From: Mycobacterium sp. Root265 | Lineage (GTDB): Bacteria; Actinomycetota; Actinomycetes; Mycobacteriales; Mycobacteriaceae | DNA length: 61,417 nt | NCBI RefSeq assembly: GCF_001428895.1 | Contig: NZ_LMJA01000032.1 | Coordinates: 1-61,417 of the forward strand | Direction: 5' to 3' | Part shown: positions 9,815 to 44,400 of the stretch, one piece after another | How the letters are laid out: every line of letters begins with the position of its first letter | Numbering within the stretch: the first letter of the stretch is position 1 | The notes under the pieces: model-generated | Told to the model about the DNA's origin: nothing | Database searches by the model: none | The model's input: the letters and a program-made list of their open reading frames with translations, nothing else | Made by a program: the position numbers and the translations under genes

Positions 9815-9821
9815 CCCAGCA

Positions 9822-9879
9822 AATAAAAGCGGGCGACGATCCGTGATCGGACTCTCGTCCGACTCGGCTCGCCGCCCGC
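9822..9879 (-). terminator. Intrinsic terminator of Ms1
   Basis: On the minus strand an 11-bp stem (arms 9869-9879 and 9829-9839, one G-U pair) encloses a second hairpin TCGGAC/GTCCGA (9847-9862). It is followed by TTTTATTT at 9828-9821. Confidence 0.85.
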
Positions 9880-10137
9880 TAGCACGGACTCCGGTTACCA
9901 AGCGTGCTCTGGTGGGTTGTGTGGGTGGCCTCGGCGTTCTCCCGATGCGCTACGACTGCAACCCCACCCAAGGGGTCGTCGCGCCGTTCGCTTTTCGGAA
10001 TTCCGCAGGCCCACAACGCTTCTGCCTGTATGGCGGCATGTGCTCCGCGTGGGTTCCGGTGATCCGTGCTAGGACGCTCGACTCGGGAGATCACACCTTC
10101 TCTTCTGGTGTGGCCTTGGCCTTGCCAAGCTTCCGTG
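9822..10137 (-). ncRNA. ms1: Ms1 / MTS2823 small RNA
   Basis: The roughly 400-bp gap between the Rv3662c-like and Rv3661-like genes is where mycobacteria encode Ms1 (MTS2823 in M. tuberculosis), an abundant stationary-phase RNA of about 300 nt that binds core RNA polymerase. On the minus strand there is a promoter (-35 TTGCTG at 10167-10172, 17-bp spacer, -10 TACAAA at 10144-10149) and a strong intrinsic terminator at 9822-9879, which define an RNA of about 316 nt. Internal inverted arms are consistent with a long folded RNA. Identity rests on synteny, size, strand and signals; the primary sequence was not compared. No open reading frame on either strand in this stretch looks genuine. Confidence 0.85.
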
Positions 10138-11251: not shown

Positions 11252-11348
11252 TACTCGGCTATGTCCGAGTGTGGATCAGCCCGACCCCCCGGGGCTGATA
11301 CACGACGACCTCCGCCTCCTCCCCCCCTGGCGGGGGTCGTCCCTTTTT
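11252..11348 (+). ncRNA. 6C small RNA (B11)
   Basis: A small RNA of about 97 nt between the Rv3661-like gene and ssd, the position and strand of the 6C/B11 RNA of M. tuberculosis. The defining feature of the family is visible: two hairpins with C-runs in their loops. Hairpin 1 has arms ATCAGCCC (11275-11282) and GGGCTGAT (11292-11299) around six Cs (11285-11290). Hairpin 2 has a 13-bp stem (11304-11316 with 11329-11341, one G-U pair) around seven Cs. An ACTCGG/CCGAGT stem-loop precedes them. 6C RNAs act on mRNAs through the C-rich loops and affect cell-cycle and DNA-replication genes when overproduced. Confidence 0.9.
11304..11348 (+). terminator. Intrinsic terminator of 6C RNA
   Basis: The 13-bp second hairpin of the RNA followed by CC and TTTTT (11344-11348). 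Confidence 0.85.
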
Positions 11349-28071: not shown

Positions 28072-30826
<2,755 letters not shown>

Positions 30827-30850
30827 GTTTTCCCGGCCGTATTTCAGAAA

Positions 30851-30888: not shown

Positions 30889-32664
30889 ATGTCCTATGAC
30901 GTGATCATCCGCAACGGCCTGTGGTTCGACGGCACCGGACGCCCGCCGCTCACCCGCACCCTGGGGATCCGCGACGGCCTGGTCGCCGAGGTGTCCGCCG
31001 CCCCGCTGGACGAGACCGGCTGCCCCGAGGTCATCGACGCGACCGGCAAGTGGGTGATCCCCGGCTTCATCGACGTGCACACCCACTACGACGCCGAGGT
31101 GCTGCTCGACCCCGGGCTGCGGGAATCGGTGCGCCACGGCGTGACCACCGTGCTGCTCGGCATGTGCTCGCTGTCCACCGTGTACGCCGACACCGAGGAC
31201 GCCGCCGACCTGTTCAGCCGGGTGGAGGCCGTGCCCCGCCAGTTCGTGCTCGGCGCGCTGGCCGAACACAAGACCTGGACCAACCCCGCGGACTACGTGG
31301 CCGCCATCGACGCGTTACAGCTCGGCCCGAACATCGCCTCGCTGCTGGGGCACTCCGATCTGCGCGCCTCGGTGCTCGGACTGGACCGCGCCACCACCCG
31401 CGATGTGATTCCCACCGATGCCGAACTGGAGACGATGGCGCAGCGCCTCGACGCCGCACTGGACGCCGGGATGCTCGGCATGTCCGGGATGGACGCCGCC
31501 ATCGACAAACTCGACGGCGACCGGTTCCGCTCTCGCGCGCTGCCCTCGACGTTCGCCACCTGGCGGGAACGCCGGCGGCTGATCAAGGTGCTGCGCAGGC
31601 ACGGCCGCATCCTGCAGAGCGCACCGAATGTCGCGAAAGTGGCCGAGGCGCTGAACTTCTTCCTGGAGAGCAGCGGTCTGTTCGGGCGCAGGCGCCCCGT
31701 GCGGATGAGCCTGCTGGTCTCCGCCGACGCCAAGTCCTCGCCCGGCGCCGTCCACATCCTGGGGCCGGGCGTCCGGCTGTTGAACCGGATCCTGGGCGCG
31801 AAGGTGCGTTTTCAGCATCTCCCGGTGCCGTTCGAATTGTATTCCGACGGCATCGATCTGCCGGTGTTCGAGGAGTTCGGCGCAGGCACAGCTGCTCTGC
31901 ATCTGCGCGATCAGCTGGACCGCAACAAGCTGCTCGCCGACCCCGAGTACCGGCACCGGTTCCGCAGGTCCTTCGACCGGCGCAAGCTCGGACCCGCGTT
32001 GTGGCACCGCGACTTCCACGACGCCAAGATCGTCGAATGTCCCGACGCATCGCTGATCGGCAAGAGCTTCGGCCAGATCGCCGATGAGCGCGGTATCCAT
32101 CCGCTGGACGCCTTCCTGGATGTGCTCGTGGAGAACGGTGAACGCAACGTGCGCTGGACCACCATCGTGGCCAACCACCGCCCCAAGCAACTCGACAAGC
32201 TCGCCAATGAGCCGTCGGTGCACATGGGTTTCTCGGATGCCGGTGCGCACCTTCGCAATATGGCGTTCTACAACTACGCGCTGCGCCTGCTCAAGCGGGT
32301 GCGCGACGCCGATGTGGCGGGCCGGCCGTTCATGACGCCGCAGCGTGCGGTGCACCGGCTGACCGCCGAGGTGGCTGACTGGTTCGGGCTGGACGCAGGC
32401 ACCCTGCGCTGCGGTGACCGGGCCGACTTCGTGGTGATCGACCCTGCCGCGCTGGATGATTCGGTGAACGCCTACCACGAGGCGACGGTGCCCTTCTACG
32501 GTGACCTGAGTCGGATGGTGAACCGCAACGATGAGACCGTCATCGCCACCGGCGTCAACGGTCAGGTGGTGTTCACCCGCGGCGAGTTCCGCGAGGGCTA
32601 TGGCACCACAATCAGATCCGGCCGCTATCTGCGGGCCGGGATGACCGCACCGGCTGCGGTCTAG
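30889..32664 (+). CDS. Amidohydrolase, N-acyl-D-amino-acid deacylase type
   Basis: A 591-aa metallo-amidohydrolase. The N-terminal beta-sandwich strand leads into GFIDVHTHYD (HxH metal site). GMC shortly after corresponds to the metal-bridging cysteine of D-aminoacylases. SDAGAHLRN near 445 carries the late Asp, and the C-terminus returns to the composite sandwich (GDRADFVVIDP). The length fits the family. Substrates could be N-acyl-D-amino acids or other amides. The repressor gene starts 3 nt downstream, and the operator sits upstream, so expression is probably substrate-induced. Confidence 0.86.
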   Translation: MSYDVIIRNGLWFDGTGRPPLTRTLGIRDGLVAEVSAAPLDETGCPEVIDATGKWVIPGFIDVHTHYDAEVLLDPGLRESVRHGVTTVLLGMCSLSTVYADTEDAADLFSRVEAVPRQFVLGALAEHKTWTNPADYVAAIDALQLGPNIASLLGHSDLRASVLGLDRATTRDVIPTDAELETMAQRLDAALDAGMLGMSGMDAAIDKLDGDRFRSRALPSTFATWRERRRLIKVLRRHGRILQSAPNVAKVAEALNFFLESSGLFGRRRPVRMSLLVSADAKSSPGAVHILGPGVRLLNRILGAKVRFQHLPVPFELYSDGIDLPVFEEFGAGTAALHLRDQLDRNKLLADPEYRHRFRRSFDRRKLGPALWHRDFHDAKIVECPDASLIGKSFGQIADERGIHPLDAFLDVLVENGERNVRWTTIVANHRPKQLDKLANEPSVHMGFSDAGAHLRNMAFYNYALRLLKRVRDADVAGRPFMTPQRAVHRLTAEVADWFGLDAGTLRCGDRADFVVIDPAALDDSVNAYHEATVPFYGDLSRMVNRNDETVIATGVNGQVVFTRGEFREGYGTTIRSGRYLRAGMTAPAAV

Positions 32665-32666
32665 GG

Positions 32667-33251
32667 ATGGCCCGGACCCAACAGCAGCGCCGTGCGGACA
32701 CCATCGCGCGGCTGCTCGACGCCAGCATCGAGACCATCGTCGAGATGGGTTACGCCCGGGCGTCGGCGGCGATCATCGCCAGACGGGCCGGTCTGTCGGT
32801 CGGTGCGCTGTTCCGGCATTACCCGACCATGGGTGACTTCATGGCCGCCACCGGTCATGAGGTGCTGCGCCGTCAGCTCGAGCGGTTCAGCAAGCAGGTC
32901 GCCCAGATACCGCCAGGTGAACCCGCACTTCCCGCAGTGCTTCTGGTGCTGCGCGACGTCACCGCCAGCGACACCAATGCGGTGCTCTACGAGCTGATGG
33001 TGGCCGCCCGTACCGACGAGAAGTTACGGGCCACGCTGCACGACGTGCTCACCGAGTACAGCGCGAAGATCTTCGAGACCGCCGGCGCCGTCACGCCGAC
33101 CGATCAACTCTCCGATGACACCCGGGCCGCGGTCACGGCGATCCTGACGAACACCTTCGACGGTGCGGCGATCCTGCGACCGGTGCTGCCGGACCCGGAT
33201 TTCGAGGCCCGCAAGCTCGCGGTACTCGCCGATATGCTCAGTCGCTACTGA
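32667..33251 (+). CDS. TetR-family repressor of the amidohydrolase operon
   Basis: A 194-aa regulator with an N-terminal TetR helix-turn-helix (ASAAIIARRAGLSVGALFRHYPT, about 30-52) and a variable ligand domain. It begins 2 nt after the amidohydrolase stop, so the two are one transcript, and a clean palindrome lies over the promoter: a standard self-regulated arrangement. The stop overlaps the convergent DUF2304 gene by 7 nt. Confidence 0.88.
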   Translation: MARTQQQRRADTIARLLDASIETIVEMGYARASAAIIARRAGLSVGALFRHYPTMGDFMAATGHEVLRRQLERFSKQVAQIPPGEPALPAVLLVLRDVTASDTNAVLYELMVAARTDEKLRATLHDVLTEYSAKIFETAGAVTPTDQLSDDTRAAVTAILTNTFDGAAILRPVLPDPDFEARKLAVLADMLSRY

Positions 33252-33589
33252 GACTGCTCGGGTGCGCGGGCACCCTCGAGTGCCACGGCCCTGGCCAGTT
33301 GGGCGTAGCGCAGTTCGAGATCCTTGAACCGCAGATAGGTGCTCAGCGTGGTGAACAGGAACGCGATGACCAGTGCGTACTCCAGCAGATCCGCGCCGCG
33401 GGCCACGCCGAGCTTGTTCGCCAGCAGGGTGGTGTCGTCGGGCCGCAGGATCGCGTACACCGCCGCCACCGCGAACAGCAGATATCCGACCTTCACCCAG
33501 GCCTTGGCGCGGGCGCTGCGGCGTGAGCGCAGCAGATACACCAGCAGTGTGATGACCGCCGCGATCAGCAGCAGCTGAATCCAGTTCAT
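33245..33589 (-). CDS. Small membrane protein DUF2304, PpgS partner (Rv3632)
   Basis: A 114-aa protein with three hydrophobic segments (about 4-20, 34-48, 65-84) and a charged C-terminal helix. In M. tuberculosis the equivalent Rv3632 raises the activity of the polyprenyl-phosphate GalNAc synthase. ATG 33589 overlaps the ppgS stop by 4 nt (ATGA). Last gene of the five-gene minus operon. Confidence 0.87.
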   Translation of the reverse strand: MNWIQLLLIAAVITLLVYLLRSRRSARAKAWVKVGYLLFAVAAVYAILRPDDTTLLANKLGVARGADLLEYALVIAFLFTTLSTYLRFKDLELRYAQLARAVALEGARAPEQSQ

Positions 33590-34290
33590 CGCGGCATCCT
33601 TCCTCGCAGCAGGCCGTCGAAGACGATGTTGACGCCGTTGATCAGCGGTTGTCCCTTGGACTTCGAGTAGTCCGTGTACAGGATCTCCACAGGTTCTTCG
33701 GCCACCCGCCAATGCTTTTCGCCGGCGAGCGTGATGATCTCCGACGCGTGGCTCATCCCGTTCATGGTGATGTCCAGCTCCTCGGCGACCTTCCGGTTGA
33801 ACACCCGTAGACCGTTGTGCGCATCGGTCAGGCCCAGCGCCCGGCTCCGCGGGCTCAACCACGCCGCCGCGCGCAGCACGAACCGCTTGACGGGCGGGGT
33901 GTGGCTGACGGCGCCGCCACCGAACCGGGTCCCGATGATGAGATCGACGTCCTCGGTGGCCAACCGGTCGATCATGGCGACGACATCCTTGATGCGGTGC
34001 TGGCCGTCGGCGTCGAACGTCACGAAGACCGTGGCGTCCGGCCGGCTGCGGGCGTATTCGACGCCGGTCTGAATGGCCGCTCCCTGACCGAGATTCACCG
34101 GATGCCGCACCAGATGTGCGCCGGCTCTCGCTGCCGCGTCACCGGTGCCGTCCTGGCTGCCGTCATCCACGCACACCACGTTGGGCAGGACCGCGCGGAT
34201 ATCGGCGAGCACGTCGGTGATGACGCTCGCTTCGTTGAAGGCGGGGACGATGACCCAGACGTCCGGGTACGGCGTGTCGATGCGGACCAA
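33586..34290 (-). CDS. ppgS: Polyprenyl-phosphate N-acetylgalactosaminyl synthase
   Basis: A 234-aa GT2-family glycosyltransferase (Rv3631). VIVPAFNEAS starts the GT-A fold, VDDGS and TFDADGQH supply the acidic nucleotide/metal motifs, and the middle GTRFGGG region is typical of DPM/PpgS types. It transfers GalNAc to polyprenyl phosphate on the inner face. The sugar later appears as galactosamine on arabinogalactan in slow growers. The start is TTG 34290, one base after the flippase-like stop. Confidence 0.88.
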   Translation of the reverse strand: MVRIDTPYPDVWVIVPAFNEASVITDVLADIRAVLPNVVCVDDGSQDGTGDAAARAGAHLVRHPVNLGQGAAIQTGVEYARSRPDATVFVTFDADGQHRIKDVVAMIDRLATEDVDLIIGTRFGGGAVSHTPPVKRFVLRAAAWLSPRSRALGLTDAHNGLRVFNRKVAEELDITMNGMSHASEIITLAGEKHWRVAEEPVEILYTDYSKSKGQPLINGVNIVFDGLLRGRMPR

Positions 34291-34291
34291 A

Positions 34292-35545
34292 CTACACGCG
34301 ATCGGCGGTGGCCAGCGCGTACAGGTGTACGGCGATTCCCACGATCGGCCCGCACAGCAGCGCCACGATGGTCCGGGTTTCCAGGCCCAGCGGAAGCAGC
34401 AGCAGCGCGATCGCGGCCAGCGTGGCGCCGACCCACCCCGCCGCGTACGCACGGTGCAGCGCCGCCGCCACGGCGGCCGCACCGGTCAGGGTCAGCAGCG
34501 CGATGGCCACCGCACCGGCAGTGAACCAGGCCAGCAACCCGCCCGCGGCCTGATAGTCGGGGCCGAAGGCGTTGCGCAACAGCCAGGGCCCGGCCCACCA
34601 GGCGGCCAGCACGCCGAGGCCGCCGATCGCGGTCACCGCGGCGGCCGGAACCACCAGGGCGTGCAGACGCCGGTGACTCTGGTCCACGAAATGCGCGATC
34701 AGGTTGCCCTGCATGGCGGTCAGCGGCACCAGCAGCGGTGCCCGGGTGAGTGTGACCGCCAGGATGACGACGCCGCCGGCCGCGCCCAATTCGGGGGTGG
34801 TGGCCTTGAGCAGCACCGGGAAACCCATGATGAGGACGGCGCTGGCGCCGGCCGCGGCCACCGAGTGGAAGGCCCCGGTGAGAAAGGTGCGTGCGCTGCC
34901 CGCGGCCGTCAGCCGGGCCGCCTCACGGGTGGCAGGCGACAGCGCCAGCAGGATCAGCCAGGCCACCGAACCGGCCACGGTGGCCCACAGGAATCCGGCC
35001 AGCCCCCACCCCAGCACGAAGGCGGCCGCGGCGACCGCCACCCGGATGGCGGCATCGGTGACCATCAAAGACCCGTACTGCGTCCAGCGGTCCACCCCGG
35101 CGAGCATCCCGAGCAGCGTTGCGTGCAGGCAGAATCCGGCCAGCCCGATGCTCAGCAGGACCACGCTCAGCAGCTGGTCGGCGGTGAACACCTGGGCCGA
35201 CCACAGCGGCGCGGTGGCGGCGATGAGCAGCGCGGCGCCGATGCCGACGACGGCCGCGATCCGCATCGGCCTGGTGGTCTCGGCCGGGGGGACGTGCTGG
35301 CCGCGCATCGCGCGGACCTCGCGGGTGGATTCCTGCAGCAGCCCATTGGCGGCGCCGCTGACCAGACCGAACGCCCCCCAGAACACCCCGAACAGGGAGA
35401 ACCCGGCGGGTTCCAGATCGCGGGCGGCCAGATAGAGCACGGCGTACCCACACAGCGCGGACAGTGCGGTGGCGAGTCCCACGCGGGCGACGCTTCCCCG
35501 CGTCACCGGGCCCCTCGCCGGCACTGCCGCGCTGGCGTCGGTCAC
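34292..35545 (-). CDS. Flippase-like polysaccharide-export membrane protein (Rv3630)
   Basis: A 417-aa membrane protein with about 12 transmembrane segments and only short loops, resembling the Wzx/MOP exporter fold. It sits directly before ppgS, so it may move the polyprenyl-phosphate-linked sugar or another lipid-linked unit across the membrane (inference). The start GTG 35545 overlaps the M1 peptidase stop (GTGA). Confidence 0.82.
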   Translation of the reverse strand: MTDASAAVPARGPVTRGSVARVGLATALSALCGYAVLYLAARDLEPAGFSLFGVFWGAFGLVSGAANGLLQESTREVRAMRGQHVPPAETTRPMRIAAVVGIGAALLIAATAPLWSAQVFTADQLLSVVLLSIGLAGFCLHATLLGMLAGVDRWTQYGSLMVTDAAIRVAVAAAAFVLGWGLAGFLWATVAGSVAWLILLALSPATREAARLTAAGSARTFLTGAFHSVAAAGASAVLIMGFPVLLKATTPELGAAGGVVILAVTLTRAPLLVPLTAMQGNLIAHFVDQSHRRLHALVVPAAAVTAIGGLGVLAAWWAGPWLLRNAFGPDYQAAGGLLAWFTAGAVAIALLTLTGAAAVAAALHRAYAAGWVGATLAAIALLLLPLGLETRTIVALLCGPIVGIAVHLYALATADRV

Positions 35546-36915
35546 AGGTCCGGTACGTCCTTGGAGTACAGCCAGCGGTCCCACAGTGGGCGCAGTGACA
35601 CGTCGGCGTGGTTGGCCGCCAGTCCGGTGAAGTCATCGGTGACGGCCGTGCTGTGCCGGTAGCGGGTGGTCCAATCGCGAAGCAGCGCAAAGAAGTTGTC
35701 ATCGCCGATCACGCCGCGCAGGGCGTGCAGGGTGAGCGCGCCGCGCTTGTACACCCGGTCGTCGAACATGTCGGCCGGGCCGGGGTCGGTCAGCAGCAGA
35801 TTCTGCGGTGAGTCCTTGAGCCTGCGGTGGTAGGACCGCGCCCGCTCGTCGGCGCTGGGGCCGCCGGACTCCTCGGACCACAGCCATTCCGCGTAGCAGG
35901 CGAAGCCCTCGTGCAGCCAGATATCGCGCCAGCGCCGTACCGTCACCGAGTTGCCGAACCACTGGTGGGCCAGTTCGTGGGCGATCAGCCGTTCCGCGGT
36001 GCGCCTGCCGTCGCAGTGGTTGGCACCGAAGATCGAAAGTCCCTGCGCCTCAAGCGGTATCTCCAGATCGTCGTCGGTGACGACGACGGTGTAGCCGCCC
36101 TCCAGAGGGTAGGGCCCGAACTGGCGGGTGAACAGTTTCATCATCTGTGGCTGGCGGCCGAAATCGTGTTCGAAGTTGCGCCGCAACCGATCCGGGAGCA
36201 CCGCGTGCATCGGCACCGGGCTCTTCTGCAGCCGGTGGCGGCTGTACTCACCGATCTGCAGGGTGATGAGGTACGTCGAGGTCGGTTCGGCCTGCTCGTA
36301 CACCCAGGTGGTGTGGCTGGCCCGCGTCTGCTTGGACAGCAGTTCACCGTTGGCCAGCGCGTAGTACGGGCTGTCGGTGCTGATCCGGATGTGGAAGCTG
36401 GCCTTGGCGGCCGGGTGGTCGTCGCACGGGAACCACGATGCGGCGCCGTTGGGCTGTCCGGCCACCAGGGCGCCGTTGGACAGCTCCTCGAAACCGACGT
36501 CGCCCCACAGGGTTCGCAGCGGCCGGGGAGTTCCGCCGTAGCGGACCGCGATGGTCATCGCCGCACCGGCGGGCAACGTGGACCCGAGTGTGACGTGCAG
36601 CTTGCCACCCGTACATCGGAACTGTCCGGGCCGGCGTCCGTTGACGGTAACCTTCGACACCGACAGCGCGTCGGACAGATCGAGGGTGAAGGTGCGCAGC
36701 GCGGCCAGCGTGACGGCCGTGATCGTCACCGTCCCGGCGAGCCGGTTGATCGCCACCTTGTATTCGAGATCCAGTTCGTAGCGCGACACCCGGTAGCCGA
36801 AGTTGCCGTTACGGGGCAGATACGGGTCGATCACCGGGGGCTGGTGTGCCGCCTTGCGTGCGGCTTTCTTGGCGGGTCTCACCGGTCGTGCTTCTTCGGC
36901 CGTTTGATCGTCCAT
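35542..36915 (-). CDS. M1-family zinc metallopeptidase
   Basis: A 457-aa gluzincin. The zinc site HELAHQW is followed by the third ligand in LHEGFACYAEW, spaced as expected. The exopeptidase signature GAMEN is replaced by EAQGLSIFG, so N-terminal amine binding may differ and aminopeptidase action is not assured. The catalytic domain is preceded by the usual beta-sandwich; the C-terminal HEAT part of PepN is missing, as in short M1 proteins. No signal peptide; the N-terminus is Lys/Arg/Ala-rich. ATG 36915 lies inside the end of the NRPS gene (37-nt overlap), so the two are coupled. Confidence 0.86.
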   Translation of the reverse strand: MDDQTAEEARPVRPAKKAARKAAHQPPVIDPYLPRNGNFGYRVSRYELDLEYKVAINRLAGTVTITAVTLAALRTFTLDLSDALSVSKVTVNGRRPGQFRCTGGKLHVTLGSTLPAGAAMTIAVRYGGTPRPLRTLWGDVGFEELSNGALVAGQPNGAASWFPCDDHPAAKASFHIRISTDSPYYALANGELLSKQTRASHTTWVYEQAEPTSTYLITLQIGEYSRHRLQKSPVPMHAVLPDRLRRNFEHDFGRQPQMMKLFTRQFGPYPLEGGYTVVVTDDDLEIPLEAQGLSIFGANHCDGRRTAERLIAHELAHQWFGNSVTVRRWRDIWLHEGFACYAEWLWSEESGGPSADERARSYHRRLKDSPQNLLLTDPGPADMFDDRVYKRGALTLHALRGVIGDDNFFALLRDWTTRYRHSTAVTDDFTGLAANHADVSLRPLWDRWLYSKDVPDL

Positions 36916-39900
36916 GGCGCAATCGGGTTGCCCTGCCACCTGGTCCACGGCGGCACCTCGTCACCCCGCATCACCAGCGACGCCGGGCCGACGGTGGCTC
37001 CTTCGCCGATACGCGATGCCGGCAGCGCCACGCAGTGCGGGCCTAGGGTTGCACCCTCGTCGAGGATGACGGTGTCCATCCGCATGATCCGGTCGTGGAA
37101 CAGGTGGGTCTGTACCACGCAGCCCCGGTTGACGGTGCTGGCGCTGCCGAGGGTGATCAGATCCGCCTCGGGCAGCCAGTAGGTCTCGCACCAGACTCCG
37201 CGGCCGATCTTCGCGCCGAGTCCGCGCAGCCAGATGTTCATCACCGGGGTACCGGTCGCGGCCCGGGCGAACCACGGCGCGGCCACCGTCTCCACGAAGG
37301 TGTCCGATACCTCGTTGCGCCACACGAACGACGACCACAGCGGGTGTTCGATGGCGTCGATACGACCCACCACAAGCCATTTCGCGGCCACCGCGATGGC
37401 ACCGGCCACCGCGCCGGCGATCAGCAGCACCAGGCCGCCGGCCAGGGCGGTCCAGCCGTAGCCGATCGCGTCGGCCAGGTGGTGCAGCGACGCCAGCACA
37501 CCGACGCCGATCGCGAAGGTCACGATGACCGGGATGATGCGGCAGGTCTCCACCACCGAGCGCATCACCCGCAGCTTGACCGACGGGTTGAAGGTGCGGA
37601 TCGCGTCGGCGGCAGTGGGTTTGCGGCGCAACCGGATCGGCGGGCTGCCCAGCCACGACGAGCCGGCCTTGGCCTTGTGCGGTGCCGCGGACAGCACCGC
37701 CACCAGGCCGTCGTCGGGGACCCGCCGTCCCGGCTGGGTGATACCGGAGTTGCCGAGGAACGCGCGCTTGCCGATGGTGGCCTTCGCGACGTGGATCCAT
37801 CCGCCGCCGAGTTCGTAGGAGGCGACCATGGTGTCGTCGGCCAGGAACGCGCCGTCCTGCACCTCGGTGAATTTGGGCGTCAGCAGTGCGGTCGAGATCT
37901 CGGTGCCCTTACCGATTTTCGCGCCCAGCAGGCGCAGCCACCACGGTGTCAGCAGGCTGGCGTAGATGGGGAACAGGTAGTTGCGCGCGGCGTCCATCAG
38001 CCGCTCGGTGGCCCACAACTGCCAGCCGACCCGGCTGCGCACCGGGTGATAGCCCTCGGTGAGCCCGGCCGCGAGCAGCCGCACCCCGATCACGGTCAGC
38101 ACCGCGTACACCACCATCGCCACCAGGGCGGCGATCGGCGTCCAGGCCAGGGCCGGGACCAGCGCGTCGGCCGGGGTGGCGGTGCCGCGGACGGCCCAGC
38201 CCAGCACCGCGAGCCCAGCGGCCAGCGCCGCCAGCGGCAGCGCACCCAGCAGCATCGACGTCACGCTGTAGAAGGCCACCCACACCGGGGCGCGGCCGGG
38301 CCGCTCCAGCGGCCAGGGATGGCGTGCCTTACCGGATTTCGCCGCGGGTGAACCCTTCCAGTACTGCCCGTTCTTCACCTTGCCGACCACACCGGAACCC
38401 GCGGCGACATCGGCGTTCTTGCCGACCACCGCCCCCGGGAACAGGGTGGTGCGCGCGCCGATGGTGGAGTCGTTGCCCACGGTGATCGGCCCGACGTGGA
38501 ATACGTCGCCGTCGATCCAGTGCCCGGTCAGGTCCACCTCGGGTTCGATGGAGCAGCGGTGGCCGAGGGTGAGCATGCCGGTGACCGGCGGCGCGGAGTG
38601 CAGGTCGACACCCTTGCCGACCGTATTACCAAGGGCGCGTGCGTAATACACCAGCCACGGGGCGCCGGCCTGATTCTCCGCACCGCTGGCCTCGGCCAGC
38701 CGCTCGGCGAACCAGACGCGCAGATGCTCCGAACCGCCGCGGCGGTAGCTGCCCGGTTGCAGTCCGGACAGCAGGGTGCGAGCCCCCAGCGCGGCGATTC
38801 CCATCCGGCCCGGCGGGGTGATGAAGATCAGGAACCCGGCGATGATCCACCACCAGTTCGCCGGTGCCGCCCAGGGCACCAGCTCGGTGGCGGCCGCGAT
38901 GTTGTTGAGGATCGCCAGCCAGATCACCCATTGCAGGCCGGTCAGCGTCGCCAGCGGCACCGACAGCGCCACCTGCGTCAGCTGGGTGAGAACCGGTGTC
39001 GGTGCCACATCGCGGCGCACCACCTCCGGCGGCGGGGCCAGCTCGTCGAGGTAGCCGGCCAGCGATCCGAGCCGGGGATGGTCGTACAGGTCGGCGACGG
39101 TCACCTGGGGATAACGGCTTCGGACCGCGGTGACCAGCTGGGCCGCCGACAGCGAGCCGCCGCCCAGGGCGAAGAAATCGGCTTCCGGGCCGTCCACCGA
39201 CGCGGCCAGCACATCGCGCCACAGGCCGGCCAACCAGCCCATGGTGCCACCGAGGTCGGGCTCCTCCTCCGCGGCGGCGCCGGGCGGCGGCCACGGCAGT
39301 GCGTTGCGGTCGACCTTGCCGGAGGTCCGGGTGGGCAGTTCGTCGAGCAGGACCAGCCGGGGAACCAGCGCCGCGGGCAGCGCGTCCGACAGCGCGGTGC
39401 GGGCCGCGGCAAGGTCGAACGCCGGGTCGGCGCTGGCGATGTAACCGACCAGCAGGGGAGTGCCGCTGGTGGTGCGGCGTACCGCGGCCGCCCCGCCGCT
39501 GACACCGGGCAGGTTCACCAGCGCGGCGTCCACCTCGCCCAGTTCGATGCGGCGTCCGCCGACCTTGACCTGGTCATCGGCGCGGCCCTGGAAGTACAGG
39601 CCGTCGGCCTCCAACCGCACCAGGTCCCCGCTGCGGTAGGCGCGCTCCCAGCCCAGCGAAGGCATGGCGGCGTACTTCTCGGCGTCCTTCTCGGGGTCCA
39701 GGTATCGGGCCAGGCCGACGCCACCGATGACGAGTTCGCCGGTCTCGCCCAGTCCGACCGGCAGCCCTTCCTTGTCGACGACGACGAGGTCCCAGCCGGG
39801 CAGCGGCAACCCGATGCTCACCGCGGACTTCCCGTCCAGCGGTGCCGCGCACGCCACCACGGTCGCCTCGGTGGGGCCGTAGGTGTTCCACACCTCGCGG

Positions 39901-40763
39901 CCGTCCACGGCGAGTCGTTCGGCCAGTTCGGGTGGGCAGGCCTCGCCGCCGAAGATCAGCAGCCGGACCGCTTCCAGCGCTTCGGCGGGCCACAGCGCGG
40001 CCAGGGTGGGCACGGTCGAGACGACGGTGATGTCGCGGGTCACCAGCCACGGCCCGAGGTCCATACCGCTGCGCACCAGCGACCGCGGAGCGGGCACCAG
40101 GCACGCACCGTGGCGCCAGGCCAGCCACATCTCCTCGCAGGACGCGTCGAAGGCCACCGACAGTCCGGCGAGCACCCGGTCACCGGGGCCCAAGGGGGCC
40201 TCCGTGAGGAACATCCGGGCCTCGGCGTCGACGAAGGCGGCGGCGTTGCGATGGGTGACCGCCACGCCCTTGGGTGTGCCGGTGGATCCGGAGGTGAAGA
40301 TGATCCAGGCGTCGTCGCGGGTGAGCGGTGCCGCGGCACGCCAGCCCCGCGAGGAACCCGGGCCGCGCACCAGGCCCGCGTCGGTGATGATCGCGACCAC
40401 CTGTGCCTCACCGAAGACGAGCGCGGCGCGTTCCTCGGGATCGTCGGCGTCGACCGGGACGTAGGCGGCGCCGGTGGCCAGGGTGGCCAGGATCGCGGTG
40501 TAGAGCGCGTAGCTGCCCGAGGCCATCCGGATACCGATGCGGTCACCGCGGCCGATGCCGCGCGCCGCGAGCCACTGCACGCTCTCTTCGATATCGCTGA
40601 CCAGCTCGGAATAGGTCAGCTGAACGTCGCCGTCGTCGATCGCGGGGGCATCCGGGAAACGGTTCGCGGTGTCGTAGAGGACGTCGATCAGGGTCCGCGG
40701 TGGAGCTGCCGCCGGGGAAAGAAGGTATTGGGTAGGGATGGCCTGCCCGGGCTCCGCTGTCAC
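36879..40763 (-). CDS. Pls/PosA-family NRPS (epsilon-poly-lysine-synthetase-like)
   Basis: 1294 aa with the full architecture of epsilon-poly-L-lysine synthetase. The adenylation domain (about 25-490) has TSGSTGTPKG, NTYGPTE, YRSGD, GRADDQVKVGGRRIE and TSGKVDRNAL. A carrier domain has phosphopantetheine Ser537 in LGGGSL. Then come three membrane pairs, each followed by a hexapeptide-repeat (left-handed beta-helix) module: about 700-800, 920-1010 and 1150-1285. There is no condensation or thioesterase domain. Aligning by hand to GrsA gives specificity residues D206 A207 E210 S249 I270 G272 T294 V302 V303 K483, close to the lysine code remembered from bacitracin synthetase. TAGTTT 6 nt before GTG 40763 marks a leaderless start. 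First gene of the operon. Confidence 0.93.
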   Translation of the reverse strand: MTAEPGQAIPTQYLLSPAAAPPRTLIDVLYDTANRFPDAPAIDDGDVQLTYSELVSDIEESVQWLAARGIGRGDRIGIRMASGSYALYTAILATLATGAAYVPVDADDPEERAALVFGEAQVVAIITDAGLVRGPGSSRGWRAAAPLTRDDAWIIFTSGSTGTPKGVAVTHRNAAAFVDAEARMFLTEAPLGPGDRVLAGLSVAFDASCEEMWLAWRHGACLVPAPRSLVRSGMDLGPWLVTRDITVVSTVPTLAALWPAEALEAVRLLIFGGEACPPELAERLAVDGREVWNTYGPTEATVVACAAPLDGKSAVSIGLPLPGWDLVVVDKEGLPVGLGETGELVIGGVGLARYLDPEKDAEKYAAMPSLGWERAYRSGDLVRLEADGLYFQGRADDQVKVGGRRIELGEVDAALVNLPGVSGGAAAVRRTTSGTPLLVGYIASADPAFDLAAARTALSDALPAALVPRLVLLDELPTRTSGKVDRNALPWPPPGAAAEEEPDLGGTMGWLAGLWRDVLAASVDGPEADFFALGGGSLSAAQLVTAVRSRYPQVTVADLYDHPRLGSLAGYLDELAPPPEVVRRDVAPTPVLTQLTQVALSVPLATLTGLQWVIWLAILNNIAAATELVPWAAPANWWWIIAGFLIFITPPGRMGIAALGARTLLSGLQPGSYRRGGSEHLRVWFAERLAEASGAENQAGAPWLVYYARALGNTVGKGVDLHSAPPVTGMLTLGHRCSIEPEVDLTGHWIDGDVFHVGPITVGNDSTIGARTTLFPGAVVGKNADVAAGSGVVGKVKNGQYWKGSPAAKSGKARHPWPLERPGRAPVWVAFYSVTSMLLGALPLAALAAGLAVLGWAVRGTATPADALVPALAWTPIAALVAMVVYAVLTVIGVRLLAAGLTEGYHPVRSRVGWQLWATERLMDAARNYLFPIYASLLTPWWLRLLGAKIGKGTEISTALLTPKFTEVQDGAFLADDTMVASYELGGGWIHVAKATIGKRAFLGNSGITQPGRRVPDDGLVAVLSAAPHKAKAGSSWLGSPPIRLRRKPTAADAIRTFNPSVKLRVMRSVVETCRIIPVIVTFAIGVGVLASLHHLADAIGYGWTALAGGLVLLIAGAVAGAIAVAAKWLVVGRIDAIEHPLWSSFVWRNEVSDTFVETVAAPWFARAATGTPVMNIWLRGLGAKIGRGVWCETYWLPEADLITLGSASTVNRGCVVQTHLFHDRIMRMDTVILDEGATLGPHCVALPASRIGEGATVGPASLVMRGDEVPPWTRWQGNPIAPWTIKRPKKHDR

Positions 40764-40769
40764 TGTTAC

Positions 40770-40775
40770 AAACTA
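40770..40775 (-). promoter_or_regulatory. -10 box of the NRPS operon (leaderless)
   Basis: TAGTTT on the minus strand, 6 nt before GTG 40763. Confidence 0.5.
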
Positions 40776-40884: not shown

Positions 40885-41274
40885 GTGCGGTTATTCGTGG
40901 CAGATGAAGCGTGGAGTGAATTGACCTCCGGTCCCGAGCCGGTGGTCCGGGTGGCCGCCGACGACCTGCAGCAGGCGCGCCGGGCCCGCGACCGGCTCCG
41001 CGGCGACGACGGACAGGTCGCCGTGATCCTGGACGTCAGGGTCGCCGTGGCCGGGGACGTCCGTGCCGCCTATGCCTCGCTGGGTCCCGACGAGTACACC
41101 CGTGGCGTCCGCTATGCCGGCACCGTGAGTGGGCTGGCCGGGCTGATCGCCGATATCGAGACCGCCGGGGTGGCCGACGGCGTCACGCTGGTGGGCGGGA
41201 CCTCGCCGGCGGACCTGGCCGAGATCGGCCGCAGCGTGCTGACGCTTCTCGAACAGCGCCACCGCGCCGCCTAG
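40885..41274 (+). CDS. Small protein resembling the C-terminus of luciferase-like monooxygenases
   Basis: A 129-aa protein. The last half (YAGTVSGLAGLIADIETAGVADGV, split, then LVGGTSPADLAEIGR) reads like the C-terminal segment of F420- or flavin-dependent LLM oxidoreductases, but the barrel that would bind the cofactor is absent. It has its own leaderless promoter, so it is not obviously a decayed gene. It is divergent from the NRPS operon across 121 bp. Its TAG stop is nested in the convergent gene's stop. Function unknown. Confidence 0.68.
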   Translation: MRLFVADEAWSELTSGPEPVVRVAADDLQQARRARDRLRGDDGQVAVILDVRVAVAGDVRAAYASLGPDEYTRGVRYAGTVSGLAGLIADIETAGVADGVTLVGGTSPADLAEIGRSVLTLLEQRHRAA

Positions 41275-44264
41275 GTTTTCAGCAGCTGCTCCAACGACAT
41301 CGCCGCACCGTCGGCGACGGCCGTGTCGTAAGCGTCGTCACCGAGGGCCGCCCGGGCGGACCGCGCGGATTCGGCATGGTCGCCGTCGTAGACCGCGAAA
41401 CGCACCGCCCCCTGTTGCCTGCGGAGCGCGTCGGCGGCCCCGAGCAGGCGGGCCGTTTCCCGAGCGTTGTCCGCGGCCAGCGACAGACAGTCCAGGACAT
41501 CGGGCAGGGCTCCGTGGGCGTCGGCCTCGGCGGCCACCGAGAGTGCCCGGCGGGCGTCGAGTGCGGCGCCGTCCCGGTCGCCGGCGCGCAGCCGGCGTCG
41601 GGCACTGGTGGCGAGCACCGTGGCCAGATGCCAGCCCTGCATCGCCGGTGACACCTCGTCGATCCATTTCTCGGCCGCCCGCAGATCGCCGCGCGCGATG
41701 GCGATGTCACCGACCGGGTGCAGGTTCATCGAGGCCAGATGGTGGTGTTCGGCGAGCAGCTCGGTGGCCAGGCGGCTTGCCTCGTCGGCCGCCTCGACAT
41801 TGCCGTCGGCCAGGTGCGCGGCCGCCACCGCCGCCCGTGCCTGACCCACCCACATGTCGCCGAGCCCCGCGGCCGCGGTCATTGCCGTGTTCGCCGACCG
41901 GCGGGCCGCATCGGTGTCGCCGCGGCGGGCCAGCACGTGGGCGCCGGTGATCAGTGCCTGCGCCCGGTGCAGCGGGTCCTTGCCCGCGGCCGAATCCATG
42001 GCGGTGGCCTCGCATTCGGCGGTGGCCCGCACCAGTTCGCCGGCCAGCATGGACGCCGCGCCGTAGCCCCAGCAGCGGCAGGCCCTCGCCACGTAACCCG
42101 CACCGATCGCGGTGGCGACCGCCAGGCCCTCCCCGCCGGCGATCCGCGCCGTCACCGGGTTCCCGGCGCCGGCGATCGCCGCATAGGCGCGCCAGCTCAG
42201 CAACTCGGCGAGATGCCAATCGTCGCCCAGTTGCCGGGCCAGCCCGATCGCCTCGTCGAAGTAGCGGTCCGCGGTGGCCCTGGTGAAGACCGAATTGCTG
42301 CAGCACGCGATCAGAGCGCGCAACAACAGCTCCGGATCGTCGAACTCCCGGGCCAGCAGCAGCGCGCTCTCGGCTTGTTCGAGGCCTTCGGCGGCGCGCA
42401 CCGAGGCGTCCAGGAACATCTTGTCGGCGATGGCCCGGGCACGCGACGGAGTGCGTGCCGAGTCGCCGTCGCTCAGCGCCGCGGTGAACCATGCCAGTCC
42501 TTCGTGCACCAGCCCCCGCGCCAGCCACAGCGGCGGCAGCGAGGACGCCAGTTGCAGCGCGAGTGCATTGTCGCCGTTGCTCATGCTCCAGTCGAAAGCC
42601 GCACGGAGGTTGTCGATCTCGGTGTCCGCCTGGTCGATCCGCTGCGTCCGGTCCGGGGTTCCCGGGGCGCTGATGGTGGCGGCCATGGCGGTGTAGTGAT
42701 CGCGGTGCTTGCCGCGCAACCCGGAGGTCTCCCCGGAGTCGGCGAGCTTCTCCAGGGCGTACTGGCGAACGGTCTCCAGCATCCGGTAGCGCGTCGGGCC
42801 GCCGGTGGTGTCGGCGCTGACCAGTGACTTGTCGACGAGCATCGTCAGCAGGTCCCGGATCTCGTACCCGGGTACCGACTCGTCCACGCACACCGCTTGT
42901 GCGGCCAGCAGATCGAAACCGCCCATGAAGACCGGGCAGCGACGGAACAGGATGCGCTCGGGTTCGGTGAGCAGATTGTGCGACCAGTCCACCGAGGCGT
43001 GCAGGGTCTGCTGTCGGTGGGCGGCCGACCGGGTGCCCCCCACCAACAGCCGGAACCGGTGTTGCAGGCCGTCGAGGATGTCGGCCAGGGACAGTGAGCG
43101 GACCCGGGCGGCGGCCAGCTCGATGGCCAGCGGTACGCCGTCGAGGCGCCGGCAGATCTCGGTGATGGTCGTCGCCGCGTCGGTGGTCACGATGAAGTCG
43201 GGATTGGCGGTGGTGGCGCGCTCGATGAACAGCTCGATGGCTTCGTCGTCGAGGGACAGTGACGGGACCCGCCACACCACCTCGCCGGGGACGCCCATCG
43301 GTTCCCGGCTGGTGACCAGGAATGTCAGGCCCGGGCAGGCGCGCAGCAGGTCCATGACGACGGCGGCACTGGCGTCGAGCAGGTGTTCGCAGTTGTCCAG
43401 CAGCACCACCAGATCCCGGTCGCCGACGGATTCGATCAGGGTGTCGATCGTCGATCTGCCGGGGCGGTCGGGCGCTCCCAGGACACGTGCGACGGTGCTC
43501 GTCACGAGTGCCGGGTCGGTGATCGAGGACAGGTCCACGAACTTCGCGTCGTCGAAGCCGTCGACCACCTGCAGGGCCAGCCGGGTCTTGCCGGTCCCGC
43601 CCGCGCCGGTGAGGGTCACCAGCCTGCTCTGCTTGAGCAGGCGCGCCACCTCTTCGATCTGGTTCTGGCGTCCGACGAAGCTGCTGAGCTGCAGCGGCAG
43701 GGTCCGGCTGGCCGGCTGCTTGGCGGTCCGCAGTGCGGGGAAGCTGTTGCGCAGGTCCGGGTGGCACAGCTGGCTGACCCGCTCCGGCCGGTGCAGGTCA
43801 CGCAGCGGGTAGGTGCCGAGGTCGGTGAACCAGGCCTCCGCGGGCAGGGCGTCCGCGACGAGTGCCTCGGTGGCTCCGGACACCACTGTCTGACCGCCGT
43901 GGGCGAGATCGCGCAGCCGGGCGGTGCGGTTGACGGTGGGGCCGGCGTAATTGGCGGCGTCGCGCATCTGCACCTCCCCGGTGTGGACACCGATGCGCAG
44001 GGTGATCGGCGCCAACTGGGCGAACTGGAAGTCCAGCGCGCATGCCACCGCGTCGGCGGGCCGCCGGAACGCGATCACGAAACTGTCGCCTTCGCCTTGT
44101 TCGAGGGGGCGGGCACCGCCGTGTACGGCGGTGAGTTGGGTGATCACGGTTTCCATCGTCGCGACGGCGGCGGCCATCTCGTCGGGCCGGGTCTCCCACA
44201 GCCGGGTGGAGCCTTGGACATCGGCGAGGAGCAGTGTCACGATGCCGGTGGGCAATTCGGTCAT
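41271..44264 (-). CDS. Class III cyclase-domain / NB-ARC ATPase / TPR regulator (Rv0386-like, no HTH)
   Basis: 997 aa. Residues 1-170 are a class III nucleotide cyclase domain with both metal aspartates, D15 (LADVQGST) and D60 (GEGDSF). The substrate-selecting Lys and Asp positions read Q56 and N105, the Gln/Asn pair (49 apart) described for M. tuberculosis Rv0386. An AfsR/MalT-type ATPase follows with GAGGTGKT and LLDNCEHL, then about 400 residues of TPR-like helices. Rv0386-type proteins normally end in a LuxR DNA-binding domain; this one stops without it. ATG 44264 is preceded by GGGAGG at good spacing, so the longer frame is rejected. Confidence 0.88.
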   Translation of the reverse strand: MTELPTGIVTLLLADVQGSTRLWETRPDEMAAAVATMETVITQLTAVHGGARPLEQGEGDSFVIAFRRPADAVACALDFQFAQLAPITLRIGVHTGEVQMRDAANYAGPTVNRTARLRDLAHGGQTVVSGATEALVADALPAEAWFTDLGTYPLRDLHRPERVSQLCHPDLRNSFPALRTAKQPASRTLPLQLSSFVGRQNQIEEVARLLKQSRLVTLTGAGGTGKTRLALQVVDGFDDAKFVDLSSITDPALVTSTVARVLGAPDRPGRSTIDTLIESVGDRDLVVLLDNCEHLLDASAAVVMDLLRACPGLTFLVTSREPMGVPGEVVWRVPSLSLDDEAIELFIERATTANPDFIVTTDAATTITEICRRLDGVPLAIELAAARVRSLSLADILDGLQHRFRLLVGGTRSAAHRQQTLHASVDWSHNLLTEPERILFRRCPVFMGGFDLLAAQAVCVDESVPGYEIRDLLTMLVDKSLVSADTTGGPTRYRMLETVRQYALEKLADSGETSGLRGKHRDHYTAMAATISAPGTPDRTQRIDQADTEIDNLRAAFDWSMSNGDNALALQLASSLPPLWLARGLVHEGLAWFTAALSDGDSARTPSRARAIADKMFLDASVRAAEGLEQAESALLLAREFDDPELLLRALIACCSNSVFTRATADRYFDEAIGLARQLGDDWHLAELLSWRAYAAIAGAGNPVTARIAGGEGLAVATAIGAGYVARACRCWGYGAASMLAGELVRATAECEATAMDSAAGKDPLHRAQALITGAHVLARRGDTDAARRSANTAMTAAAGLGDMWVGQARAAVAAAHLADGNVEAADEASRLATELLAEHHHLASMNLHPVGDIAIARGDLRAAEKWIDEVSPAMQGWHLATVLATSARRRLRAGDRDGAALDARRALSVAAEADAHGALPDVLDCLSLAADNARETARLLGAADALRRQQGAVRFAVYDGDHAESARSARAALGDDAYDTAVADGAAMSLEQLLKT

Positions 44265-44377
44265 GGGCCGGCACCTCCCGCGTCGGAGTCTGGTTTCGAC
44301 CATGGTGACACGCTTAAGTTGCACGCGCGTCAGAGCGGCTGGCGTCGCCCCGATCTGCACGCATCGCCGCGACGATG

Positions 44378-44400
44378 ACTAATCCAATCCGTGCATTAGT
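44378..44400 (+). promoter_or_regulatory. LysR-type operator upstream of the glucarate operon
   Basis: ACTAAT, 11 nt, ATTAGT: a perfect 6-bp inverted repeat with the T-N11-A core of LysR-type recognition sites. Its centre (44389) is 65 bp before the predicted transcription start at 44454, the classical position for a LysR activator's anchor site. Confidence 0.6.

What the first reader, a model, noticed from the sequence alone, without database searches (positions are those of the whole stretch)
33245..40763. A poly-lysine-synthetase-like NRPS in one operon with a peptidase, flippase and PpgS
Seen: five minus-strand genes packed with overlaps or gaps of 37, 4, 1 and 4 nt: Pls-like NRPS, M1 metallopeptidase, flippase-like protein, PpgS, DUF2304 partner, led by a leaderless promoter. 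Known: Pls makes epsilon-poly-L-lysine in Streptomyces; PpgS and Rv3632 make a polyprenyl-phosphate amino sugar for the mycobacterial wall; in M. tuberculosis the last three occur without the NRPS and peptidase (from memory). Inference: the operon may make a lysine-containing or poly-lysine product that is exported or attached to a lipid-linked sugar, with the peptidase trimming it or giving protection. I know of no described mycobacterial system of this kind.
Basis: partly seen in the sequence, partly recalled or inferred. Interest (0 to 1): 0.82.

Follow-up and report, generated by a model that had tools for sequence, protein, structure and literature searches.

The report
Polylysine operon fused to wall-sugar genes
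A fast-growing mycobacterium carries the known kind of gene pair for making and cutting the antimicrobial polymer polylysine, run together with a gene for a flippase-like membrane protein and with genes for a wall sugar that can carry positive charge; what it makes has not been tested.

Summary
The five genes are real (33245-40763, minus strand) and form two modules. Module 1: a Pls/PosA-family synthetase (TIGR02353, 742.8 bits, cut-off 423.1) with the ten-residue lysine code of Streptomyces albulus Pls (DAESIGTVVK, 155 of 155 full-length homologue rows), then an M1 peptidase in the place of PldII, the known polylysine-degrading partner. This half is a mycobacterial member of the known pls-pldII pair, with a twist: five Streptomyces-like M1s carry a Tat-like signal, the other 162 measured do not. 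Module 2: PpgS-DUF2304 of the wall galactosamine pathway. Between them sits a MOP-fold protein, closest in fold to the flippase WzxE. Its start overlaps the M1 stop by 4 nt in 60 of 60 measured linked genomes; its junction with PpgS is loose (4 of 30). NRPS-M1-MOP are linked in 62 of 83 Pls-bearing genomes of the genus sample, all five genes in 34. But 27 Pls genomes lack PpgS, 32 PpgS genomes lack Pls, and a sister locus lacks exactly PpgS-DUF2304. A joint lysine-sugar product is therefore unlikely. Best reading: one leaderless promoter drives two separate envelope pathways. Product, transcript and substrates are untested.

The parts
40770..40775 (-). TAGTTT, -10 element of the predicted leaderless promoter (6 nt before the GTG start)
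   Evidence: sequence; pattern in 30/32, 23/26, 17/21 loci versus 1/79 control; 110/155 versus 2/155 over all loci, Rhodococcus and Nocardia included
36879..40763 (-). Pls/PosA-family NRPS, 1294 aa (A, T, terminal membrane domain)
   Evidence: TIGR02353 742.8 bits; A domain best PDB match 7wew epsilon-poly-L-lysine synthase, 619 bits
39276..40763 (-). adenylation domain (residues 1-496) with code D206 A207 E210 S249 I270 G272 T294 V302 V303 K483
   Evidence: same code in S. albulus 7WEW and in 155 of 155 full-length homologue rows (the window's own copy L143 is one of them)
39048..39236 (-). thiolation domain (residues 510-572), Ser537
   Evidence: PF00550; Ser in 156 of 156 rows
36921..38978 (-). 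terminal membrane domain of Pls type (residues 596-1281), six hydrophobic segments
   Evidence: TIGR02353 profile 2-695 of 695; hydropathy
35542..36882 (-). M1 metallopeptidase in the PldII position; 446 aa from GTG 36882 (4-nt overlap with the NRPS stop); HELAH-18-E; no signal peptide seen
   Evidence: PF01433, PF17900; motif; start; 43% identical to the M1 next to Streptomyces-like Pls
34292..35545 (-). MOP-superfamily membrane protein, candidate lipid-linked sugar flippase; GTG start overlaps the M1 stop by 4 nt
33586..34290 (-). [quoted passage not shown]
   Evidence: NF058614 413.9 bits, cut-off 370
33245..33589 (-). DUF2304 protein (place of the Rv3632 partner)
   Evidence: PF10066; 4-nt overlap with PpgS in 34 of 34 linked loci
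29855..30826 (+). epimerase of the type that accompanies PpgS (taken as the Rv3634c type, by gene order)
   Evidence: epimerase type follows PpgS presence; activities of Rv3634c from PMC5389812 passages; no call compared the sequences
28072..29832 (-). polytopic membrane protein, taken as the Rv3635 counterpart by gene order; conserved WDD near the N terminus; possible GT-C transferase
   Evidence: no family hit; follows the MOP or PpgS genes in many loci; conserved residues; the GT-C reading is inference

Best explanation
The locus is a polylysine operon joined to a wall-sugar operon. The synthetase activates L-lysine, loads it on its T domain, and its membrane-embedded terminal domain links lysines through the epsilon-amine into a short cationic polymer (domain set and code shown; product inferred from the family). 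The coupled M1 peptidase is the PldII counterpart; because it lacks the export signal of the Streptomyces-like enzymes it probably trims or destroys polymer in the cytosol (inferred). The MOP protein most likely flips a polyprenyl-linked sugar, the PpgS product where PpgS is present (fold and co-occurrence shown; substrate inferred). PpgS with the DUF2304 protein makes polyprenyl-P-GalNAc for the arabinogalactan GalN (family knowledge). One leaderless promoter probably drives all five (inferred). The two pathways make separate products; co-expression may make sense because GalN puts positive charge on the wall and so could shield the producer from its own polycation (speculative).
For: Pls identity. 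M1 directly downstream in 83 of 83 Pls loci of the genus sample and in five Streptomyces-like genomes whose Pls A domain is 76-93% identical to S. albulus Pls; literature: pldII adjacent to and translationally coupled with pls (PMC9223678 passages), C. variabile pls-peptidase operon, the synthetase giving epsilon-PL in S. coelicolor (PMC8117764 Results). No M1 signal: highest N-terminal hydropathy 0.96 among 162 rows against 1.29-1.44 in the five. MOP fold. Outside the genus but within the family it is present in 3 of 3 genomes with PpgS and 0 of 10 with Pls but no PpgS (Fisher p 0.0035). Tight NRPS-M1-MOP block, loose MOP/PpgS junction. Separability. Similar order in Williamsia L052, Speluncibacter L061, Dietzia L080.
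Against: No product, transcript or activity was measured. The MOP gene stays in 27 of 27 Pls genomes without PpgS and in G072, which has neither, so it is not specific to PpgS in this genus. In the three same-family genomes outside the genus that have PpgS and MOP, Pls lies elsewhere (other contig, or about 600 kb away). Four other-family genomes with PpgS over cut-off (G230, G249, G265, G337) show no MOP match at E<=1e-20. Pls and PpgS co-occur less than expected in the genus sample (56 against 61.9, Fisher p 0.0056, relatedness not corrected), which weakens the self-protection idea. On the synthetase tree the linked state needs only 2 changes, so its conservation counts as one or two events. 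WzxE leads the fold list in its inward form only; its outward forms tie with MATE.
Confidence: 0.6

Rival explanations
1. The MOP protein exports the polylysine. It would be a polycation exporter coupled to synthetase and peptidase, and its neighbourhood with PpgS would be secondary.
Confidence: 0.2
2. One joint product: lysine or oligolysine is attached to the polyprenyl-P-GalNAc or to wall GalN, giving a lysylated glycolipid or wall.
For: Five genes packed in one direction; GalN has an amine that could accept an aminoacyl group (inference).
Against: 27 of 83 Pls genomes lack PpgS and 32 of 88 PpgS genomes lack Pls; in sister locus L211 exactly PpgS-DUF2304 is missing while NRPS-M1-MOP aligns at 91% DNA identity; code and domain set are those of a homopolymer synthetase.
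Confidence: 0.06
3. Mere neighbours: two unrelated operons fell together once in an ancestor and were inherited.
For: The linked state needs only 2 changes on the synthetase tree; Pls and PpgS do not co-occur positively.
Against: The 4-nt M1/MOP overlap is kept in 60 of 60 measured; in 6 of 83 genus loci NRPS-M1 lies at the other end of the same sugar locus, beside the Rv3635-position gene, as also in the named Mycolicibacter loci L026, L028, L029; similar order in three other genera.
Confidence: 0.14

Closest known systems
pls-pldII operon of Streptomyces albulus and the pls-peptidase operon of Corynebacterium variabile
   Same: Pls-type synthetase with the same lysine code, M1 peptidase directly downstream, coupling
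   Different: M1 without the Tat-like signal of the Streptomyces-like enzymes; leaderless start; MOP protein and PpgS-DUF2304 attached downstream
Arabinogalactan galactosamine module of M. tuberculosis and C. glutamicum (PpgS, Rv3632, Rv3634c, Rv3779)
   Same: PpgS over cut-off, DUF2304 partner, the epimerase that accompanies PpgS nearby
   Different: Placed behind a polylysine operon; MOP gene coupled to M1; the published account names no flippase (PMC9671496 passage). An Rv3779 counterpart was not looked for
PosA delta-poly-L-ornithine synthetase of Acinetobacter baumannii
   Same: Same enzyme family and architecture (PMC10522769)
   Different: Ala, not Met, after the first Asp of the code, as in the lysine enzymes of the family
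WzxE lipid III flippase
   Different: 16% identity; substrate not tested; outward WzxE forms (27.1, 26.6, 25.5) tie with MATE (27.2)

Membership tests
Pls/PosA cationic homopoly(amino acid) synthetase | TIGR02353 terminal domain over cut-off, full length | tested here: met
   742.8 bits versus 423.1, profile 2-695 of 695
Pls/PosA cationic homopoly(amino acid) synthetase | A and T domains before six membrane segments | tested here: met
   PF00501, PF00550; six hydrophobic segments after residue 599, by a simple hydropathy count that also flags one segment inside the A domain
Pls/PosA cationic homopoly(amino acid) synthetase | lysine pocket code of Pls | tested here: met
   DAESIGTVVK, identical to 7WEW; positions mapped by spacing from the PosA residues
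Pls/PosA cationic homopoly(amino acid) synthetase | makes epsilon-poly-L-lysine | not testable with these tools
   needs expression and mass spectrometry
PldII-type epsilon-PL-degrading peptidase | zinc peptidase encoded next to and coupled with pls | tested here: met
   HELAH-18-E; 43% identity to the M1 gene next to Streptomyces-like pls; 4-nt overlap with the NRPS in 81 of 81 measured genus loci, 56 of 73 measured named loci. PldII's own sequence was not at hand: identification by position
PldII-type epsilon-PL-degrading peptidase | located outside the cell membrane (PMC9223678 and PMC9205021 passages) | tested here: not met
   no N-terminal hydrophobic stretch or RR motif, unlike the five Streptomyces-like M1s; simple hydropathy, no signal-peptide program; export by another route not excluded
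PldII-type epsilon-PL-degrading peptidase | hydrolyses epsilon-polylysine | not testable with these tools
   needs assay
MOP superfamily flippase (Wzx-like) | MOP fold | tested here: met
MOP superfamily flippase (Wzx-like) | transports a polyprenyl-linked sugar | not testable with these tools
   only co-occurrence with PpgS outside the genus
PpgS | NF058614 over cut-off | tested here: met
   413.9 versus 370 bits

The most novel reading that the evidence does not exclude
Many fast-growing mycobacteria make epsilon-polylysine with a self-contained unit: synthetase, cytosolic peptidase and a dedicated MOP transporter that moves the polycation (or a lipid-linked precursor) out, in some species co-expressed with wall cationisation by galactosamine as self-protection. 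This would be a new kind of polycation island in the mycobacterial envelope.
Probability: 0.18. Interest if true: 0.82.

Novelty: new variant of a known kind. Interest (0 to 1): 0.55.

Why it matters
I found no report of polylysine from mycobacteria in the search listings (a library that lacks most subscription journals), yet 83 of 118 sampled genomes of the window's genus carry a Pls-family synthetase over cut-off, with the lysine code in every full-length copy read. If active, it would be a cationic antimicrobial polymer made inside one of the best-studied cell envelopes. The locus also offers a concrete candidate for a missing step: the lipid-linked sugar of the arabinogalactan GalN pathway is said to be flipped by an as yet unidentified factor (PMC9671496 passage), and a MOP-fold protein stands beside PpgS in most loci of this genus that were read.

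Tried and rejected
Joint lysine-sugar product: rejected as main reading because the modules separate. A flippase that serves PpgS only: weakened, because the MOP gene persists in PpgS-less genomes. M1 start at ATG 36915: less likely than GTG 36882. The amidohydrolase and TetR genes beside DUF2304: present in only 14 and 15 of 83 loci, so not counted as parts. Clustering other neighbours of NRPS-M1 in loci without the MOP gene gave mixed-frame clusters and no clear partner. Sequence searches of the MOP protein and of the Rv3635-position protein against PDB and Pfam gave nothing credible. A structure of the Rv3635-position protein could not be queued. Foldseek 'pdb' was not accepted; the VIA comparison was used instead. 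Paper searches with all terms required on Rv3635 and on polylysine/M1/aminopeptidase returned none. Six weak MOP matches in other families (29-34% identity, G168, G189, G202, G208, G222, G271) were not followed.

Full report
WHAT IS THERE. The five genes lie as described on the minus strand: NRPS 36879-40763, M1 peptidase 35542-36882 (GTG; 36915 if the upstream ATG is used), MOP-type membrane protein 34292-35545, PpgS 33586-34290 and DUF2304 33245-33589. Families: TIGR02353 at 742.8 bits (cut-off 423.1) and NF058614 at 413.9 (370); Peptidase_M1, Peptidase_M1_N and DUF2304 in Pfam. The window lies in a 6.67 Mb genome. The nearest named loci found are Mycolicibacterium sp. P9-64 and Mycobacterium aquaticum, 84% in the NRPS; that this is a fast-growing Mycolicibacterium-type organism is inferred from that.

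THE SYNTHETASE. The A domain's best solved relative is S. albulus epsilon-poly-L-lysine synthase (7wew, 619 bits, 64% identity). Pocket positions were mapped by spacing from PosA (PMC10522769: Introduction, Results parts 2 and 3 of 4, and passages). The window and 7WEW share DAESIGTVVK, and so do 155 of 155 full-length homologue rows; 166 loci had a match and 11 partial ones were dropped. The rows include the window's own copy L143, and named and unnamed sets overlap in part, so 155 is not a count of independent species. Ser537 of the T domain is kept in 156 of 156 rows. PMC10522769 says that lysine enzymes of this family have Ala after the first Asp, as here. The lysine assignment is strong but inferred.

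THE PEPTIDASE. M1 follows the synthetase in 83 of 83 Pls loci of the genus sample (three hidden by an overlap filter were recovered). It is downstream in 79 of 80 named loci, 72 of them within 150 nt and at most 2.1 kb away; L016 ends at the contig edge. S. albulus PldII is reported as adjacent to and translationally coupled with pls (PMC9223678, passages), and C. [quoted passage not shown] coelicolor (PMC8117764, Results and Discussion read). So this half is of a known kind. A difference: the five Streptomyces-like M1s start with an RR motif and a hydrophobic stretch (hydropathy 1.29-1.44); among the 162 other M1 rows measured the highest value is 0.96 (167 of 168 rows measurable). The mycobacterial enzyme is thus probably cytosolic, with a Lys-rich tail.

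GENE ORDER. In 118 genus genomes Pls is in 83, PpgS in 88, both in 56, Pls only in 27, PpgS only in 32, neither in 3. Of the 56, 34 are tightly linked. Two more (G008, G112) are cut by contig ends inside the operon and are probably linked. Orders of the 83: NRPS-M1-MOP-PpgS-DUF2304 in 34, NRPS-M1-MOP without PpgS behind it in 28 (L223 of G112 is one of these, at a contig end), NRPS-M1 alone in 21 (L149 of G008 is one, at a contig end). Of these 21, six have the epimerase and Rv3635-position genes directly upstream. Starts overlapping the previous stop by 4 nt: NRPS/M1 34/34, 27/27 and 20/20 (L181 dropped); M1/MOP 34/34 and 26/26; MOP/PpgS 4/30 in linked and 4/50 in unlinked loci; PpgS/DUF2304 34/34 and 33/53 (start codons fill 4-10% of in-frame positions there). 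For M1/MOP, one search had one misfit, L211: its M1 frame has a stop ahead of the GTG position and the overlap motif is in place at its true end. In named loci the overlaps are in 56 of 73 (NRPS/M1) and 28 of 31 (M1/MOP; not in L052, L075, L080). So NRPS-M1-MOP is one tight block and PpgS-DUF2304 another.

AN EXCHANGEABLE CASSETTE. Loci with PpgS have one epimerase type, read divergently from the Rv3635-position gene: 31 of 34 linked and 48 of 53 unlinked; the rest show none (L145 and L150 lack it although the next gene follows; others end early or were not looked into). PpgS-less Pls loci have instead a same-strand epimerase of another type in 26 of 27 (exception L198); the one copy scanned (L152) is GalE over the TIGR01179 cut-off. 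On the synthetase tree the two states need at least 8 changes, against 19.75 on average for shuffled labels, so the swap recurred; gain and loss cannot be told apart. Sister L211 (97% identical synthetase) lacks exactly window 33252-34290, i.e. PpgS-DUF2304, and has another segment in place of 29852-30847. Rv3634c, whose place the first epimerase type holds, has UDP-Gal and UDP-GalNAc epimerase activities (PMC5389812 passages), so the joint loss fits loss of the GalNAc branch. G072 has neither Pls nor PpgS but keeps the MOP, epimerase and Rv3635-position genes.

PROMOTER. TAGTTT six bases before the GTG start fits a leaderless mycobacterial promoter. The pattern is found in 30/32, 23/26 and 17/21 loci of the three orders, against 1/79 in the control stretch (any in-frame start near the aligned beginning was allowed, for test and control alike). 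Rhodococcus and Nocardia loci often show purine-rich, Shine-Dalgarno-like sequences instead (read by eye).

MECHANISM. See Best explanation. Shown: domains, code, overlaps, fold, separability. Inferred: lysine polymer, cytosolic trimming, flipped substrate, co-transcription, self-protection. [quoted passage not shown] the MOP protein is a candidate for the first.

NOVELTY. The pls-pldII half is known. Its mycobacterial form, its M1 without a signal, and its coupling to a Wzx-like protein and the GalN module did not appear in the search listings; the held library lacks most subscription journals, so this is not proof of absence from print.

Noticed in passing
window 41271-44360 (-): A large cyclase/AAA regulator gene (Guanylate_cyc plus AAA matches) is present here, but window 41269-44391 has no counterpart at the same place in the two closest relatives L172 and L211.
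   Followed up: partly
window 40885-41274 (+): A 129-aa protein without family hits, divergent from the NRPS, recurs upstream of the NRPS in 38 of 83 genus loci and in several Rhodococcus loci.
   Followed up: no
L052, L061, L080: In Williamsia, Speluncibacter and Dietzia a GT2-like gene on the opposite strand sits between the MOP gene and PpgS; it may correspond to Cgp_0396 of C. glutamicum (GT2 reading by eye, correspondence not tested).
   Followed up: partly
L237 (G115): The MOP gene near PpgS is decayed (three stops in the matched stretch) in a 3.3 Mb genome.
   Followed up: no
window 30889-33251 (+): An amidohydrolase and TetR pair stands in the sugar locus of a minority of genomes, with or without PpgS (14 and 15 of 83 loci).
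   Followed up: no
L181 (G045): The synthetase is split over two frames in one complete genome.
   Followed up: no
window 9821-10136 (-) and 11270-11345 (+): Ms1 small RNA and a 6C RNA element.
   Followed up: no
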